A stretch of DNA of 25,601 nt from a virus, in IMG/VR virus record IMGVR_UViG_3300035698_014733, positions 1-25,601 of that record. One strand, written 5' to 3'. Both the position numbers and the translations under genes were made by a program. Positions 3,890 to 16,309 of the stretch are shown one piece after another. Position 1 is the stretch's first letter, and each line of letters begins with the position of its first letter. The notes under the pieces were generated by a model. That model searched no databases, was not told the DNA's origin, and worked only from the letters and a program-made list of their open reading frames with translations.

Positions 3890-4379
3890 AGTTAAAGAAA
3901 TAAAAATACTCATTGGGCCAGGTATTCGTGATGGAATAACTCAGAAAGATGCAGTAAATATTTCTAAATTTCTTCTAAAATCTCTTAAAAATGTTTCTAT
4001 AGAACCAGCAGGTTATTATTCACCTGTATTGACTGCATACAAATTTATTGAAACTGCTCCCAAAGGAATATATGCTTTAGCATCTTCTTCAAAGGATAAC
4101 GATTATAGAAGAATTCAAGAATTTACATCTCAGCACCAGAAAAATGGAAAATATTTTGGATTAATTCCATCCGGAGTTAAAGTTGTAGAATTAGCAGATA
4201 ATATTTCTCCTATACAATATTCGAAAACTTCAATCCGAAAAGGCATTCCTATTTCTGCTACTCTTTTACGAAATGATATTTTAAATAAAGATTTTGAAAA
4301 CTTTACATTAAATTATCCATACCAAGATACTAAAACGATTAAACTTATTTGGAAGAAATTAAAACATGAAAGCAGTTAA
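3789..4379 (+). CDS. HxGH-type nucleotidylyltransferase (cytidylyltransferase/NMNAT-like fold)
   Basis: At 196 residues it has the size of single-domain enzymes of the cytidylyltransferase superfamily, which transfer a nucleotide monophosphate from ATP or CTP. Seen: the nucleotide-binding start IIVLFPGSFKPMHDGHTNL, with the HxGH signature at His19-Asp-Gly-His22, and the second signature S-x-T-x-I-R in SKTSIR (residues 145-150), corresponding to ISSTxxR of NadM, CoaD and related enzymes. The substrate cannot be read from the sequence: NMN, phosphopantetheine, glycerol-phosphate and FMN enzymes share these motifs. The start cannot move downstream without losing HxGH, so the 101-base overlap with the preceding frame is forced on this side. 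It overlaps the next gene by 14 bases. Confidence 0.8.
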   Translation: MKTKNRIIVLFPGSFKPMHDGHTNLVERYSKNPKVKEIKILIGPGIRDGITQKDAVNISKFLLKSLKNVSIEPAGYYSPVLTAYKFIETAPKGIYALASSSKDNDYRRIQEFTSQHQKNGKYFGLIPSGVKVVELADNISPIQYSKTSIRKGIPISATLLRNDILNKDFENFTLNYPYQDTKTIKLIWKKLKHESS

Positions 4380-5160
4380 AGATTACGCACCAATGAATAT
4401 TGCTGAGGCAGAGGCTAATTATGCTTTTGTCTTAAGATATATTATTCCAAAATTAGTTAAGAATGATTCTGATTATCTTCCAATTGGTTCTTTTCGTAAA
4501 AAATCAATTATTAGAGATTTAGATATTGCTATTATACATGATTCAGTTGATGAAGTGGCAGAAGTATTGAAAGATCTTGGATATGAACCAATTATAATGA
4601 GAGGGTTTAATCAAGTTACTATCTCAATTCCTTTTTTCCAAGAAAATAAGATTGCTCAGGTAGATTTAATGTTAACTAAAAATTTAGATTGGAGTGAATG
4701 GACTTATTATTCTGCAGAGAATACCAATTCTATATACAAGGGAATTTATAGAACTGCATTTCTTAGTTCAATTTTTTCTGAAATGGACAAAGAATTTAAA
4801 TTAAGAGATGAGGATGGAGAAATCGAAGAATATGAACATACTGTTTTAAGATTACATTCAGGTATCTGGAAAGTTAAAAAAACTTATCAAGGTAAAAAGG
4901 GATTAGTTAAAACTCCAAAAATAATTGAAGAAACGTTTATAACAAATAGTCCATCTGTGGCCAGAAAAATTTTAAGAATTAACGATATTAGCATAACATT
5001 AACATTTGAAAAATTATGGAGTTGGTTTATAAGCGATTCTTTTCCATTTAAAGATAAAAGATATCTAATGCTTTCTAAATTTAAACATCATTTGGATAAT
5101 GCTAAAGCATATTACCCAAAAGAAATATTATCAGACAAAGAATATAATCACCAATTTTAA
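4366..5160 (+). CDS. Pol-beta-fold nucleotidyltransferase
   Basis: This is a 264-residue protein with the minimal nucleotidyltransferase signature: G41-S42 in PIGSFRKK, followed by D51-L-D53 in RDLDIAI, and a third carboxylate D100 in AQVDLML. These are the metal-binding residues of the DNA polymerase beta / poly(A) polymerase / CCA-adding superfamily. The C-terminal half contains a helical region (KLWSWFISDSFPFKDKRYLM) as in substrate-binding domains of such enzymes. It lies in tight overlap between the HxGH enzyme and the ligase-like enzyme, so a joint role in end repair, tRNA repair or a nucleotide modification is plausible but inferred. Confidence 0.72.
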   Translation: MKAVKDYAPMNIAEAEANYAFVLRYIIPKLVKNDSDYLPIGSFRKKSIIRDLDIAIIHDSVDEVAEVLKDLGYEPIIMRGFNQVTISIPFFQENKIAQVDLMLTKNLDWSEWTYYSAENTNSIYKGIYRTAFLSSIFSEMDKEFKLRDEDGEIEEYEHTVLRLHSGIWKVKKTYQGKKGLVKTPKIIEETFITNSPSVARKILRINDISITLTFEKLWSWFISDSFPFKDKRYLMLSKFKHHLDNAKAYYPKEILSDKEYNHQF

Positions 5161-9223: not shown

Positions 9224-10141
9224 ATGAATTTCATATATCTAACAACGAATTTATTAAATGGTAAGCAATACATAGGATCGCATAAAGGTGATATAGATGA
9301 TAGTTATTTAGGAAGCGGAAAAATTCTTTTAAAATCATTAAATAAAAATGGTAAAAAAAATTTTGAAAGAAAAATAATAGAATTTTGTGATCCATCTTTA
9401 AATCTTATTTTAGAAGAAAAATATATTAAAGAATACAATACTTTAGTTCCAAATGGATATAATATAAGTCCAACTGGTGGTCATGGATTAAATGGTATAA
9501 TGCATGAAGAAACAAAAAGAAAAATAAAGAATAAACAAAAAGGGAAGAAAAAAATAGAATATTTTATTGAAAAATATGGAAATGAAGAAGGAAATATCAG
9601 ATATAAAAAGTGGATAGAAAAAATAAAATTTCCTAAAGGAAATATTTCTTGGATGAAGGGTAGAAAACATTCAAAAGAGACAAAAGAAAAAATAAGTAAA
9701 AGTAAAAAAGAAAAACCAAATTTAAAATTAAGGGGTCAAAAATTTTCTGATGAACACAAGAAAAAAATAAGTGAATCTCATATAGGTTTAAAACAATCAA
9801 CAGAAACGATAGAAAAAAGACGATTAAAACAAATAGGCAGAAAACACACAGAAAAAACAAAAAGAAAAATGTCAATTACTGCAATAGGTAAAAAGAAATC
9901 AAAAGAACATATTAAGAATTTAACAGAGGCACAAAGAAAATTTTCTATTGACGTGGGCACAATAGAAACCATCAAAAGTTTAAAACGGAGTGGTTTACTT
10001 AATAAAGAAATACATGAGAAATATTCTCAATATTCTTATTCTACTATAAATAGAATAATATCTGGAAGTTATGATTCAGGAATTTATAAACAAGATATTC
10101 CCAAAAGAATAGAAATAGAACAAATAAGTAGAGGAAAATAA
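9224..10141 (+). CDS. free-standing GIY-YIG homing endonuclease with NUMOD3 repeats
   Basis: This is a 305-residue protein. Its N-terminal GIY-YIG nuclease domain has IYLTTNLLNGKQYIG (residues 4-18), the YLGSGK element, and a catalytic Glu in the LEEKYI helix. About residues 95-230 hold four or more NUMOD3-type DNA-binding repeats (HEETKRKI, SKETKEKIS, SDEHKKKISESHIG, TEKTKRKMS). The C-terminus (about 240-290) looks like a helix-turn-helix of the endonuclease-repeat kind. Such genes cut a homologous site in a phage lacking them and spread by repair. It sits inside the replication operon after the UvsY-like gene with its own promoter-like box, and is very Lys- and A-rich compared with its neighbours, signs of a mobile gene. 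Confidence 0.88.
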   Translation: MNFIYLTTNLLNGKQYIGSHKGDIDDSYLGSGKILLKSLNKNGKKNFERKIIEFCDPSLNLILEEKYIKEYNTLVPNGYNISPTGGHGLNGIMHEETKRKIKNKQKGKKKIEYFIEKYGNEEGNIRYKKWIEKIKFPKGNISWMKGRKHSKETKEKISKSKKEKPNLKLRGQKFSDEHKKKISESHIGLKQSTETIEKRRLKQIGRKHTEKTKRKMSITAIGKKKSKEHIKNLTEAQRKFSIDVGTIETIKSLKRSGLLNKEIHEKYSQYSYSTINRIISGSYDSGIYKQDIPKRIEIEQISRGK

Positions 10142-10830: not shown

Positions 10831-11129
10831 ACAAAATTAAAGAACGAGTAGAAGATTGTTATGCAATAATAAAGGTTGCAGAAGACGAATTAAGAAAAAT
10901 TAGAACTGAGTGTAAACATCACAAAACAGAGCTTGTAACTTATTCATGGGCACCTGGACATTTAATGCCTGATACTGAGGTGTGTTCAGATTGTGGAGAA
11001 GTAATTCAAAAACATGGCTGGACAGCTGAAGAACATGCTAAATATGAAGTTACAGTTAGTAGTAATGGAGATGATGAACAATTTATTGATGTTCCAGGAT
11101 TCGGTGGAAAAAAACCAGGTAGTTGGTAA
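10827..11129 (+). CDS. small zinc-finger-like protein
   Basis: This 100-residue protein has an N-terminal charged helix (residues 1-28), followed by a probable zinc site: Cys29 and His31/32 in ECKHHK, paired with Cys53 and Cys56 in VCSDCGEVI. The C-terminus contains Gly-rich FGGKKPGSW. It is coupled by ATGA to the preceding small gene and ends 3 bases before UvsW, so it is expressed with the helicase. The role is unknown; metal binding is inferred from the Cys/His pattern only. Confidence 0.65.
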   Translation: MNKIKERVEDCYAIIKVAEDELRKIRTECKHHKTELVTYSWAPGHLMPDTEVCSDCGEVIQKHGWTAEEHAKYEVTVSSNGDDEQFIDVPGFGGKKPGSW

Positions 11130-11132
11130 AAT

Positions 11133-12137
11133 ATGCGTCTAAAAGTATCAGAGGATAGAGATTTTTTAGTTGTTGTGGATTGTACTGCAAATGAGTTGGA
11201 ACAGCTTGAGTATAGTTTTACAAAAAAACTGGACAATTGGTTTATAATCAAGAAAAAGATAAAATCGGGTTGGGATGGTGAAATTAAATTTATAGATCAG
11301 TTTCATAGAATTCCTTTAGGACTTTGGAATGAAGTAATAAAACTATCAAAAAAATTTAAATTTCCATTAGAAATCGATGGACAAGAATTTCTCTTTGATA
11401 AAACTTATGATCAATCTAATTTCATAGAATGGTCAAATGATTATTTTTTAGAATCTAAGATTACTCCTTATGACTATCAAATTGAAGGATCTAGTCGTAT
11501 TCTAAAATTTAAAAATTGTACAGAAGAAATATCTACAGCTGGCGGTAAAACTTTAATGGCTTTTATGATATTTAAATACCTTCTTGATAAGAAAATAATC
11601 AAGAAGATGCTTTATGTTGTTCCTAATATAAATCTTGTAACTCAAACAGAAGAAAAATTCTATGAATATGATGATGGGTGTGGAAACAAACCTAATTGGA
11701 AATCAGATTGTGTTTTTGGTGGAAGAAAAGAAATTCATGATAATTCGAATATTATCTTTGGAACTTATCAGTCATTAACAAAGAAAGATTCAACCTATTT
11801 TGAAAAATTTGATGCAGTATGTATCGACGAATGTTTACATCCAAATTCTTTAATAACTATGGCCAATTTTTCAAAAAAGAAAATTAAAGACATACAAAGA
11901 GGTGAGATGGTATGGACGAAAAATGAAAAAACAAAAAAATTAGAAATAAAAGAAATAGATTTTGTGTATAAAAATTTATCTAAAGCTCAACAAATGTTTG
12001 AATTAGAATTAGAAAATGGAGATATTTTAAAAATAACTGGAAACCATAAAGTTTTATTAAAAAATAATATATGGAAAAGAGTAGATGAATTGAATGAAGA
12101 AGATGACATAATTAATTTTAATATGGTGGATATATAA
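11133..12137 (+). CDS. uvsW: UvsW-type helicase, N-terminal half fused to an N-intein
   Basis: Residues 1-233 are the N-extein: the UvsW N-terminal domain (to about 105), a Q-motif-like TPYDYQ (111-116), Walker A STAGGKT (134-140), and helicase strand VCIDE ending at Glu233 of the DExH motif. Residue 234 (Cys, codon 11832-11834) starts an intein: CLHPNSLITM is block A, and the TGNHKVLL stretch is block B with its T-x-x-H; the protein then stops after 101 intein residues. On its own this half lacks helicase motifs II (half), III, V and VI and cannot be active. It must be joined to the product at 12961. UvsW unwinds branched DNA and R-loops in T4, controlling the switch from origin- to recombination-dependent replication. 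Confidence 0.88.
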   Translation: MRLKVSEDRDFLVVVDCTANELEQLEYSFTKKLDNWFIIKKKIKSGWDGEIKFIDQFHRIPLGLWNEVIKLSKKFKFPLEIDGQEFLFDKTYDQSNFIEWSNDYFLESKITPYDYQIEGSSRILKFKNCTEEISTAGGKTLMAFMIFKYLLDKKIIKKMLYVVPNINLVTQTEEKFYEYDDGCGNKPNWKSDCVFGGRKEIHDNSNIIFGTYQSLTKKDSTYFEKFDAVCIDECLHPNSLITMANFSKKKIKDIQRGEMVWTKNEKTKKLEIKEIDFVYKNLSKAQQMFELELENGDILKITGNHKVLLKNNIWKRVDELNEEDDIINFNMVDI

Positions 12138-12143
12138 AATAAA
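12129..12143 (+). promoter_or_regulatory. late-promoter-like box GATATATAAAATAAA before the intein endonuclease
   Basis: The box is identical over 15 bases to the copy at 16354-16368. It straddles the stop codon of the N-intein half (GAT ATA TAA) and lies 6 bases before the endonuclease ATG at 12150. It would let the endonuclease be transcribed separately from the helicase. Confidence 0.45.
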
Positions 12144-12149
12144 CACACT

Positions 12150-12971
12150 ATGTCAAAACAAGAAATTTATAACTTTCTTTGTAAAAATGTTTTTAGAATT
12201 TTTACAAAGAAGGGTGGAGTATTGAATATTAAAAAACATTCAATATATAATGAATTAAATTATGATTTTAAAGATGCTGAAGATTTATATGATTATCTAC
12301 ATGATCTAACTAAATCTGACTTGAAATGTAAATTAGATTCATGCCAGAATAAAAGAAAATTTAACAGTTTTACAACAGGGTATAAAATATTTTGTTCTTT
12401 AGAATGTAATAATAAATGGCTATCAATTTCTAGAAGGGGAGCAGGAAATCCTATTCATAGAATATCAGAAAAAAACAGGATAAAATGGAAAAAAACACTT
12501 TCAACAAAAGTTAAAGAAAGAATTAAGAATGGTTCTTGGACACCAAATGTGACTAATTCTTGGTGTCATTCAAGATATAAAATAAAATTTAAAAGAAATA
12601 AAATCATAATTGAACAAAATGTTAGATCATCATGGGAAGCTTTTTTTCAAATAATGAATACAGATTATTTGTATGAAAAATTGAGAATTCCTTATATGTA
12701 TAATAATGAATGGCATAATTATATAGTAGATTTTATTAATAATACTGATAAAATAGTTATAGAAATTAAACCAAAGGGAGAATACAAAAAAACTATAAAT
12801 AAAATTAAAGAAAAAGAATTAATAAAGTGGTGTAAAAATAATAATTATACATATAAAAAAATAAATGAAGATTATTTCAAAAATATTCTATGGAATGATA
12901 ACATACTAAAGGACCAACCAGATAAAGAACGGTTAATGAAATTTAAAACATATTTCAAAAATGAAAATTAA
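12150..12971 (+). CDS. Vsr-like (PD-(D/E)XK) homing endonuclease lying between intein halves
   Basis: This is a 273-residue free-standing protein. It has an N-terminal charged region, then a zinc-finger-like Cys4 (Cys60, Cys65, Cys82, Cys86 in KCKLDSCQ and FCSLEC), a basic linker, and a C-terminal nuclease domain from about 155: SSWE (Glu163), YEKLRIPYMY (175-184), YIVDF with Asp194, and IEIKPKG with Glu205 and Lys207. The E...Y-x-V-D-F...E-x-K arrangement is that of the Vsr-related homing endonucleases found between split-intein halves and in phage introns (I-Bth0305I group). It should cut intein-less uvsW at the DExH codons. Its last 11 bases overlap the ATG of the C-terminal helicase half. 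The closest function call is firm in class, not in target. Confidence 0.82.
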   Translation: MSKQEIYNFLCKNVFRIFTKKGGVLNIKKHSIYNELNYDFKDAEDLYDYLHDLTKSDLKCKLDSCQNKRKFNSFTTGYKIFCSLECNNKWLSISRRGAGNPIHRISEKNRIKWKKTLSTKVKERIKNGSWTPNVTNSWCHSRYKIKFKRNKIIIEQNVRSSWEAFFQIMNTDYLYEKLRIPYMYNNEWHNYIVDFINNTDKIVIEIKPKGEYKKTINKIKEKELIKWCKNNNYTYKKINEDYFKNILWNDNILKDQPDKERLMKFKTYFKNEN

Positions 12972-13908
12972 AACTATAAAAACTATAAATTATTCTGGAG
13001 ATGTTTATAATCTAAGAATTAAATCTAACGGAACAAATCATAATTATTTTGCTAATAATTTATGTGTTTCTAATTGTCATCACGGAAAGACTAAATCTAT
13101 TCAAGAAATACTCATTAAATGTCATAATGCTAAATATAAATTTGGATTAACTGGAACTCTTCCTCCAGAAGATAGTTGTGATTCTTTTCATATTCAAGCA
13201 TATTTAGGACCTAAAGTTTATACAATTACATCAGCAGATTTGATTAGTGCTGAACATGCAACTCCTGTATATGTAATAGGAATTGAATTAGATTATTTAG
13301 ATAATGAAACTAAGAAAAAGCTTTATGATTTACGTAATGTAAAGGCAGAAGAAAAGGATGGAGTTAAACTTCTTAATTTAGAAAAAAATATTCTTAGATC
13401 TAATAGAAAACGATTATTATATGTTACAAACAAAATAGCTAGTACTACTAAAAATTCATTAGTATTATTTGCAGATATTAAAAATGAATATGGGAGAACT
13501 ATTTATAATTGGTTGAGAGAAAATACAGAAAAAACAATTTATTATATTGATGGTTCAACAGATAACGACAATAGAGATTATTATAAAAAACAAATGGAAG
13601 ATAATGAAGATGTAATAATTGTTGCATCTGTAGGAACGTTTAGTGAAGGTATTGATATTCTTAACGTTCATAATATTTTTATTGTTGAATCTCATAAATC
13701 AGAATATATTGTTAGACAAATTCTTGGACGTGGTATGAGATTAATGAGTGGAAAGGAAAGAATAACTGTTATAGATTTTAGTGATAATTTTGAATATGGA
13801 ACAGGATATCAACGTCCCAATTATTTAATAAGACATTCTAATACTAGAGCAGGAATTTATAAAAGAAAAAAATTCCCATATAAACGATTCAAGGAAATTC
13901 TTTCTTAA
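12961..13908 (+). CDS. uvsW: C-intein fused to the C-terminal half of UvsW-type helicase
   Basis: Residues 1-38 are a C-intein: block F around GDVYNLRI and NHNYFANN, ending LCVSN, with splice junction N38|C39 and Cys as the +1 nucleophile. The penultimate residue is Ser rather than the usual His. From C39 the extein continues CHHGKTKS (completing the DExH box), GLTGTLP (motif III, 62-68), the second RecA-like domain with FADIKNEYGR, SEGIDI (motif V), and VRQILGRGMR (motif VI with the arginine fingers, 251-260). It has no helicase Walker A, so it depends on the product of 11133. The ATG lies within the last codons of the endonuclease gene, so translation is probably coupled. Followed by an 86-base AT-rich gap. 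Confidence 0.88.
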   Translation: MKIKTIKTINYSGDVYNLRIKSNGTNHNYFANNLCVSNCHHGKTKSIQEILIKCHNAKYKFGLTGTLPPEDSCDSFHIQAYLGPKVYTITSADLISAEHATPVYVIGIELDYLDNETKKKLYDLRNVKAEEKDGVKLLNLEKNILRSNRKRLLYVTNKIASTTKNSLVLFADIKNEYGRTIYNWLRENTEKTIYYIDGSTDNDNRDYYKKQMEDNEDVIIVASVGTFSEGIDILNVHNIFIVESHKSEYIVRQILGRGMRLMSGKERITVIDFSDNFEYGTGYQRPNYLIRHSNTRAGIYKRKKFPYKRFKEILS

Positions 13909-13959
13909 TTTTTTCTTAACATTAATTCTTTTTAAAATCAACAAATTTTTTTAATTTTA

Positions 13960-13975
13960 AATATATAAATTAAAT
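13960..13975 (+). promoter_or_regulatory. late-promoter-like box AATATATAAATTAAAT
   Basis: A variant of the recurrent box, 19 bases before the ATG at 13995, in the gap after uvsW. It marks a likely new transcription unit. The G at the first position is replaced by A. Confidence 0.35.
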
Positions 13976-13994
13976 AGTTATAAATTTAGAAAAA

Positions 13995-14240
13995 ATGGAA
14001 AGCACAATTAATGCTATTGCCGATAAGTCTGGTTTTCCACGACATCTTTATAATGTCATTCCTGGAGATAATTCTACAAAAATTCACATAAAAAATTCTG
14101 GAGACAATTGGATGAAAAATAGCGAAGAATTTCAAATTTTTCAGACATTTAAACAAAACATAGAGGATAGATTTGATCTTAAACATGTATTTGGATCAAT
14201 CAATGAATTAGACGAAACCGTTATAACTATAATTTTTTAA
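13995..14240 (+). CDS. unknown 81-residue protein
   Basis: No family recognised. The peptide has a short helical start (MESTINAIADKSGFP), a basic centre, and ends in a hydrophobic strand ELDETVITIIF. It is first in a two-gene unit that ends at the terminator at 14671. Confidence 0.6.
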   Translation: MESTINAIADKSGFPRHLYNVIPGDNSTKIHIKNSGDNWMKNSEEFQIFQTFKQNIEDRFDLKHVFGSINELDETVITIIF

Positions 14241-15601: not shown

Positions 15602-16309
15602 TTGAAAAAACAAAGGAAAATATTATTTAAAAAGTATCATTATGTTTATATCACAACTAATTTAATTAACGGGAAACAATATGTTGGTGATCATTCGACT
15701 AATAATCTTAATGATAATTATTTAGGAAGCGGAACAATTTTAAATAATGCTGTAAATAAAAGAGGTAGAGAAAATTTTAAAAGAGAAATATTAACTTATT
15801 GTGATTCTAAAGAAGAAGCATATATACTTCAAGAAAAATACATTAACGAATATAAAACGCTTTCTCCAAATGGATATAATATTCATAAGAAAGGAGGAAT
15901 AAATCCTGTTCCATTTCCTGATTCACCCACAAAAATCATTAATTATTTAAAACATTTAAAAAAATATTTTAATTCTAATAATACCAATTTAACTATTCAT
16001 ATTAATAAAAATCCAAACATTAATCGCAAGAATACTAATGAAAATAATATAATTGATACTATCAAAAGCGTTCAACAAGAGATAAAAGATAAAGAAATAC
16101 AAGCCAAATTAGAAAAAGAATTTAAAATTAAAGTAACAATTACTTTCAATTCATATAATATATCTGAAAATAAAAATTTTAAAAAACTATATCTATCAAA
16201 AGAAAGTGAAAATCTTTTTTTATATCATAACGATGATTTATTAATTAAATCAAGTAATATGAATGAAATAATGAAAATATTAAAAAGTTTTAATAAAATT
16301 CTGCGTTAA
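15602..16309 (+). CDS. GIY-YIG homing endonuclease without NUMOD3 repeats
   Basis: A 235-residue protein. Its GIY-YIG domain is clear at residues 13-95: YVYITTNLINGKQYVG, YLGSGTILNNAV, and the catalytic-Glu helix LQEKYINEY, followed by LSPNGYNIH. It is closely similar in this domain to the endonuclease at 9224, but its C-terminal half has no NUMOD3 repeats and is a Lys/Asn-rich region of unknown fold. No ATG precedes the domain: TTG at 15602 (or ATA at 15599) must serve as start, or the 5' end has been lost. Inserted between the minus-strand secreted protein and the head genes. Confidence 0.8.
   Translation: MKKQRKILFKKYHYVYITTNLINGKQYVGDHSTNNLNDNYLGSGTILNNAVNKRGRENFKREILTYCDSKEEAYILQEKYINEYKTLSPNGYNIHKKGGINPVPFPDSPTKIINYLKHLKKYFNSNNTNLTIHINKNPNINRKNTNENNIIDTIKSVQQEIKDKEIQAKLEKEFKIKVTITFNSYNISENKNFKKLYLSKESENLFLYHNDDLLIKSSNMNEIMKILKSFNKILR

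What the first reader, a model, noticed from the sequence alone, without database searches (positions are those of the whole stretch)
11832..13074. Split intein with intervening Vsr-like endonuclease in the DExH motif of UvsW helicase
The helicase gene is in two pieces. The first ends with a Cys-initiated N-intein (block A CLHPNS, block B TGNH), the second begins with a C-intein ending SN|C, and a stand-alone PD-(D/E)XK endonuclease lies between. Joining the exteins gives VCIDE|CHHGK, restoring the catalytic motif with no extra or missing residue, and about 510 residues in all. Split inteins with this gene order ('fractured genes') are known from metagenomes in gp41 helicase, IMPDH and NrdJ; I know of no described case in UvsW at this site. 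If active it would be a new, naturally split, possibly fast intein for a recombination helicase.
Basis: partly seen in the sequence, partly recalled or inferred. Interest (0 to 1): 0.92.

Follow-up and report, generated by a model that had tools for sequence, protein, structure and literature searches.

The report
Split-intein-interrupted phage UvsW helicase gene
A phage DNA-repair helicase gene is broken in two at its ATPase motif by a mobile split intein with its own DNA-cutting enzyme, so the two protein halves are probably stitched together after translation; the arrangement is real, widespread in phages and visibly mobile, but belongs to a known kind of element.

Summary
UvsW is encoded in two pieces. 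The first ends in a 101-aa N-intein (from 11832), the second begins with a 38-aa C-intein (to 13074), and a 273-aa nuclease ORF lies between. The fused 139 aa align end to end with a mini-intein; the joined exteins (510 aa) align with T4 UvsW and with uninterrupted phage relatives without a gap at the junction.

It is not unique. The same site is occupied in Salmonella phage S16, Proteus phage PM2, Prevotella phages Lak-B2/B4/B7/B8 and about 33 non-redundant IMG/VR loci. Lak-B2 against the empty Lak-B1 shows an exact 1,654-bp insertion with a roughly 105-bp divergent (co-converted) tract in otherwise near-identical DNA: strong evidence of homing. All parts are under purifying selection, and the +1 residue is Cys in every occupied allele but mostly Thr, Ala or Val in empty ones.

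Correction: the nuclease is closest to TnsA, not Vsr. Related nuclease cassettes sit after the Walker-B 'DE' of several P-loop ATPases.

Verdict: an active-looking trans-splicing, mobile 'fractured gene'; a new variant of a known kind. Splicing and cleavage are inferred, not measured.

The parts
11133..11831 (+). UvsW N-extein (233 aa): UvsW N-terminal region and helicase domain 1 up to motif II 'VCIDE'
   Evidence: ResIII 8.3e-17; PHROG_16259 over residues 2-328 including the intein part; T4 UvsW 2OCA; AF2 model matches 1RIF/2OCA
11832..12134 (+). N-intein (IntN, 101 aa): Cys1, TGNH block B; TAA stop 12135-12137
   Evidence: Pfam/NCBIfam intein models; 4O1R alignment; invariant residues in 16 aligned loci; model matches mini-inteins
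12150..12971 (+). Free-standing TnsA-like PD-(D/E)XK endonuclease (273 aa); Cys-rich N-terminal part, catalytic domain about residues 141-245, D194, E205-x-K207 invariant
   Evidence: PHROG_15427 endonuclease 1.8e-26; alignment A1; TnsA-like_N in relatives L016 and L004; AF2 pLDDT 81, TnsA Z 8.7
12729..12770 (+). Predicted catalytic residues of the nuclease: D194 (12729-12731), E205 (12762-12764), K207 (12768-12770)
   Evidence: invariant in the 14-sequence alignment A1; catalytic role inferred from the PD-(D/E)XK pattern
12961..12971 (+). 11-nt overlap of the nuclease stop with the IntC start (ATGAAAATTAA), probable translational coupling
   Evidence: overlap present in 39 of 42 non-redundant loci, median 11 nt
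12961..13074 (+). C-intein (IntC, 38 aa), ends NHNYFANNLCVSN
   Evidence: Intein_splicing C-terminal model positions, weak on its own; alignment with 15 other loci; 4O1R
13075..13905 (+). UvsW C-extein (277 aa), starts Cys+1 'CHHGK': rest of motif II and helicase domain 2
   Evidence: Helicase_C 8.5e-8; PHROG_9690 1.5e-51; 2OCA

Best explanation
A mobile three-part cassette (N-intein, endonuclease, C-intein) is inserted between the Glu and Cys codons of UvsW motif II (DE|CH). The phage makes three polypeptides: UvsW-N+IntN, the endonuclease, and IntC+UvsW-C, the last probably by translation re-initiation at the nuclease stop. IntN and IntC associate and splice in trans (Cys1, TGNH His, terminal Asn, Cys+1), giving an unscarred 510-aa helicase. 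The TnsA-like nuclease probably cuts empty uvsW alleles near the site, and recombination copies the whole cassette in. Shown: sequence anatomy, whole-intein homology, selection, cassette-wide mobility in relatives. Inferred: actual splicing, cleavage, coupling.
For: Whole-intein match to 4O1R; N-fragment model matches T4 UvsW and mini-inteins including Npu DnaE and NrdJ-1. Gapless junction against uninterrupted homologues. Cys1, TGNH, NHNYFAN, terminal Asn and Cys+1 invariant in 16 aligned loci. dN/dS of window against L001/L002/L004: IntN 0.22-0.32, nuclease 0.25-0.44, IntC 0.17-0.28. +1 residue: Cys in 42/42 occupied loci against 6/30 empty ones (T15, A6, V3), Fisher p 7e-14 without phylogenetic correction. 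Lak-B2 against Lak-B1: exact 1,654-bp insert; flanks 100% identical upstream to about -22, 62% identical in the first 60 bp downstream, 95-100% beyond about +86. Nuclease family placed between intein halves at DE|CH in 42 non-redundant IMG/VR loci.
Against: No splicing or cleavage data. The penultimate residue is Ser, not the usual His, although this holds in nearly the whole clade. IntC alone scores weakly in Pfam. The +1 Cys count is not corrected for shared ancestry, and occupied and empty sets were fetched with different queries. No empty allele closer than about 70% to the window itself was found, so homing is shown for Lak phages, not for this phage.
Confidence: 0.92

Rival explanations
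1. The intein parts have decayed; the two helicase halves assemble non-covalently, as in 'genes in pieces' ribonucleotide reductase, or helicase function is lost.
For: Penultimate Ser instead of His; no direct splicing data.
Against: All splicing residues conserved and under purifying selection; Cys+1 fixed only in occupied alleles; the break lies inside motif II, where unspliced intein tails would be expected to disrupt ATPase action (inference).
Confidence: 0.05
2. A self-splicing intron or other RNA-level element removes the insert.
For: Fractured genes and introns both carry homing endonucleases in phages (general knowledge).
Against: No Rfam match in 11000-14000 even at E 1; both insert ends encode intein sequence in frame with the exteins.
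Confidence: 0.01
3. Assembly artefact or chimeric contig.
For: The window is a 25.6-kb metagenomic virus record.
Against: Same three-part order in isolates S16 and PM2 and in dozens of independent contigs.
Confidence: 0.01

Closest known systems
'Fractured genes' with split inteins and a free-standing homing endonuclease (Dassa et al. 2009; gp41, NrdJ, IMPDH split inteins) - from general knowledge, paper not readable here
   Same: Enzyme gene broken by a naturally split intein with a separate endonuclease ORF between the halves; phage setting; split at the usual homing-endonuclease position.
   Different: Host gene is UvsW at motif II; nuclease is TnsA-like rather than Vsr-related; nuclease stop overlaps the IntC start. 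I could not check whether UvsW is among the host genes of that paper.
Salmonella phage S16 gp114/gp114.1/gp115 (NC_020416) and Proteus phage PM2 KNT71_gp180-182
   Same: Identical site (DE|CHLATGK), IntN, nuclease and IntC in the same order.
   Different: Annotated only as DNA helicase / hypothetical / DNA helicase; IntC ends AHN instead of VSN.
Prevotella phages Lak-B2/B4/B7/B8
   Same: Same site, VSN-like C-intein (ISN|CHH), same nuclease family.
   Different: TAG read as Gln inside nuclease and IntC; near-identical empty relatives (Lak-B1 and others) exist.
TnsA of Tn7 (1F1Z, 1T0F)
   Same: Nuclease-domain fold (VIA-align Z 8.7 over 111-122 residues) and a Pfam TnsA-like_N match in relatives.
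   Different: About 10% identity; no TnsB/TnsC partners seen; setting is an intein.
I-Bth0305I and Vsr (EDxHD / Vsr-like nucleases)
   Same: Same broad PD-(D/E)XK-like fold (Z 5.6 and 5.2).
   Different: Lower than TnsA; no Vsr Pfam match; motif D...ExK.
Npu DnaB mini-intein (4O1R) and NrdJ-1 split intein (8UBS)
   Same: Whole-length or partial sequence match of the fused halves.
   Different: Different host proteins; penultimate Ser here.

Membership tests
Split intein (class 1, Cys1/Cys+1) | Cys1, block B T-x-x-H, C-terminal Asn, Cys/Ser/Thr +1 | tested here: met
Split intein (class 1, Cys1/Cys+1) | Two separate ORFs that together make one complete HINT domain | tested here: met
Split intein (class 1, Cys1/Cys+1) | Protein trans-splicing activity | not testable with these tools
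   needs co-expression
Split intein (class 1, Cys1/Cys+1) | Penultimate His (usual, not obligatory, so not a defining feature) | tested here: not met
   Ser here and in nearly all of the clade, Ala in L013; His in S16 and PM2
Fractured-gene arrangement | Free-standing endonuclease ORF between intein halves of a conserved enzyme gene | tested here: met
Fractured-gene arrangement | Vsr-related endonuclease (recalled as present in about half of the described loci, so not obligatory) | tested here: inconclusive
   TnsA-like_N in relatives, no Vsr Pfam match; Vsr only Z 5.2 against TnsA 8.7
UvsW helicase | Full-length collinear match to T4 UvsW with contiguous halves | tested here: met
Homing element | Precise insertion into an empty allele with flanking co-conversion | tested here: met
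   in the relative pair Lak-B2/Lak-B1; not in this phage itself
Homing element | Site-specific cleavage of the empty allele | not testable with these tools
   needs purified nuclease

The most novel reading that the evidence does not exclude
A distinct lineage of mobile split inteins, driven by TnsA-like nucleases, specialises in DNA encoding the Walker-B / motif-II 'DE|C' of phage P-loop ATPases (UvsW, a Rad3-like helicase, PhoH, terminase, probably a clamp loader), hops between these families, brings its own +1 Cys by co-conversion, and ties production of the C-terminal half of the host enzyme to translation of the nuclease.
Probability: 0.4. Interest if true: 0.68.

Novelty: new variant of a known kind. 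Interest (0 to 1): 0.52.

Why it matters
It adds UvsW motif II as a well-populated, traceable home for naturally split inteins, with cultured phages in hand, and gives dozens of new split-intein pairs to test as protein-ligation tools. The Lak-B1/B2 pair is a clean natural before-and-after record of a fractured-gene cassette moving as one unit, which bears directly on how split inteins arise and spread. A TnsA-like nuclease as the driver would widen the set of nucleases known to power homing.

Tried and rejected
Vsr membership of the nuclease: no Pfam Vsr match and lower structural score than TnsA; the absence of other folds from the list proves nothing. Intron: no Rfam match. Read-through of the nuclease in the host frame: tested by synonymous shuffling, no stop-codon deficit in the window, L001, L002, L016 or S16. 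Literature for a UvsW intein, S16 intein, Lak intein, TnsA-like homing nuclease: nothing relevant found; Dassa 2009 is not in the library. The Foldseek E-values for the nuclease were weak (best 0.042), so its TnsA label rests mainly on Pfam in relatives plus Z 8.7. The second-helicase cassettes group among UvsW cassettes in the intein tree with weak support (0.46) and are not monophyletic in the nuclease tree, so no direction of transfer is claimed.

Full report
OBSERVATION. The three ORFs are as described. 11133-12137 encodes 334 aa: 233 aa of UvsW ending VCIDE, then 101 aa beginning CLHPNS with TGNH. 12150-12971 encodes a 273-aa protein. 12961-13908 encodes 315 aa: 38 aa ending VSN, then CHHGK and the rest of UvsW.

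IS IT AN INTEIN. Pfam Intein_splicing and Hint, and NCBIfam intein_Nterm, find the N part. Fusing the two parts gives 139 aa that align with the Npu DnaB mini-intein from residue 5 to 139 (E 1.6e-9). An AlphaFold2 model of the N fragment (mean pLDDT 73) matches T4 UvsW (1RIF, 1.7e-10) and, separately, mini-inteins including Npu DnaE and NrdJ-1.

IS THE HOST UvsW. The joined 510 aa align with T4 UvsW 2OCA over 10-503, E 2.6e-43, with 'idech' running straight through the junction. Five uninterrupted relatives of 509-512 aa, 65-70% identical, align with no gap at the junction.

RELATIVES. The nuclease search of IMG/VR returned 73 loci. After removing duplicates, 42 carry IntN before and IntC after the nuclease, 33 in UvsW-like genes and 9 in a second helicase (ResIII + Helicase_C_2, Rad3/DinG-like), all at DE|CH. 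The query came from such loci, so this is not an unbiased host census, and a few of the 33 match UvsW only weakly (for example L095, L100). Cultured phages S16 and PM2, and Lak-B2/B4/B7/B8, hold the same arrangement. PHROG_16259 and PHROG_9690 already cluster such half-proteins, intein parts included.

MOBILITY. Lak-B1 is empty and Lak-B2 occupied. With the flanks lined up, the 1,478 bp upstream of about -22 are identical; from about -21 to +86 the sequences differ (62% identity in the first 60 bp downstream); beyond that they are 95-100% identical. The insert is 1,654 bp and lies exactly between DE and C. This is what repair from a diverged occupied donor after a break at the site would leave. 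In the window family, synonymous divergence also tends to be lower in the cassette than in the exteins (window against L001: dS 0.57-0.74 against 0.81-1.22), as expected if the cassette is younger in these lineages; this is only suggestive.

FUNCTIONAL CONSTRAINT. dN/dS is well below 1 for IntN, nuclease and IntC in all pairs. Cys1, TGNH, NHNYFAN, the terminal Asn and Cys+1 are invariant in 16 loci. Empty UvsW alleles have Thr 15, Cys 6, Ala 6, Val 3 at the motif-II position that becomes +1; two further pattern hits (E, G) are not motif II and were left out. Occupied alleles have Cys in 42 of 42. Shared ancestry is not corrected for.

NUCLEASE. Alignment A1 shows invariant D194, E205 and K207. 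Relatives L016 (4.4e-7, above the cut-off) and L004 (1.7e-5, just below it) match TnsA-like_N. The model (pLDDT 81) matches TnsA at Z 8.7, I-Bth0305I at 5.6, Vsr at 5.2; Foldseek E-values were weak. It is therefore best called a TnsA-like PD-(D/E)XK nuclease.

EXPRESSION. The nuclease stop lies inside the start of IntC (ATGAAAATTAA, 11 nt). In 39 of 42 loci the two ORFs overlap, median 11 nt. I infer re-initiation coupling; such overlaps are common in phages and this was not tested against a background.

A COMMON SITE. The same nuclease family also interrupts PhoH in Campylobacter phage CPt10 (VDE|C ... N|CQN) and the large terminase in Yersinia phage phiR1-RT (IDE|C ... HN|CAF, with a much shorter N-intein), and apparently a clamp-loader-like gene in L114, L122 and L124. 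In each, the break follows the Walker-B 'DE'. This is my reading of the sequences; the last three hosts were not checked further.

VERDICT. A real, almost certainly functional, mobile split-intein fractured gene. It is a new variant of a known kind. No experiment on splicing or cleavage was available.

Noticed in passing
IMG/VR loci L024, L025 (2859-6041 / 4192-5019), L026, L028 (2070-6068 / 4165-5013), L029 and L030, L031, L036 and L037: SNF2-type helicase genes with a contiguous DE|CH intein, where a DUF559 (Vsr-like) homing endonuclease of about 203-352 aa is encoded in a different frame over the same DNA. The host frame has no stop over 600-1050 nt; synonymous shuffles of the nuclease expect 12-15 and never reached 0 in 5000. 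Fractured control loci L038 and L039 show no such deficit. Dual coding inside an intein; the nearest precedent found is the out-of-frame HNH of the ShiLan element, which has no intein (PMC11855218).
   Followed up: partly
L032 (3717-6044): Same SNF2 intein with the overlapping nuclease ORF cut down to 83 aa while the host frame stays open.
   Followed up: no
L015-L023 and L067, L075, L082, L083, L086, L087, L098, L099, L113: A second phage helicase (ResIII + Helicase_C_2) fractured at DE|CH by the same intein and nuclease family.
   Followed up: partly
L049 984-3959 (Campylobacter phage CPt10): PhoH gene annotated as disrupted/pseudogene looks like a split-intein fractured gene with a TnsA-like nuclease.
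   Followed up: partly
L050 2058-4907 (Yersinia phage phiR1-RT) and similar T4-like phages: Terminase large subunit in two pieces with the same nuclease family; the N-intein part is only about 45 aa, an unusual early split.
   Followed up: partly
window 9224-10141 and 15602-16309: Two PHROG_314-type homing endonucleases (GIY-YIG-like), so the region is rich in homing elements.
   Followed up: no
window 12150-12971 and L001 1895-3001: The nuclease N-terminal region is Cys-rich (C60, C65, C82, C86 nearly invariant), probably a zinc finger; some relatives have longer N-termini.
   Followed up: no
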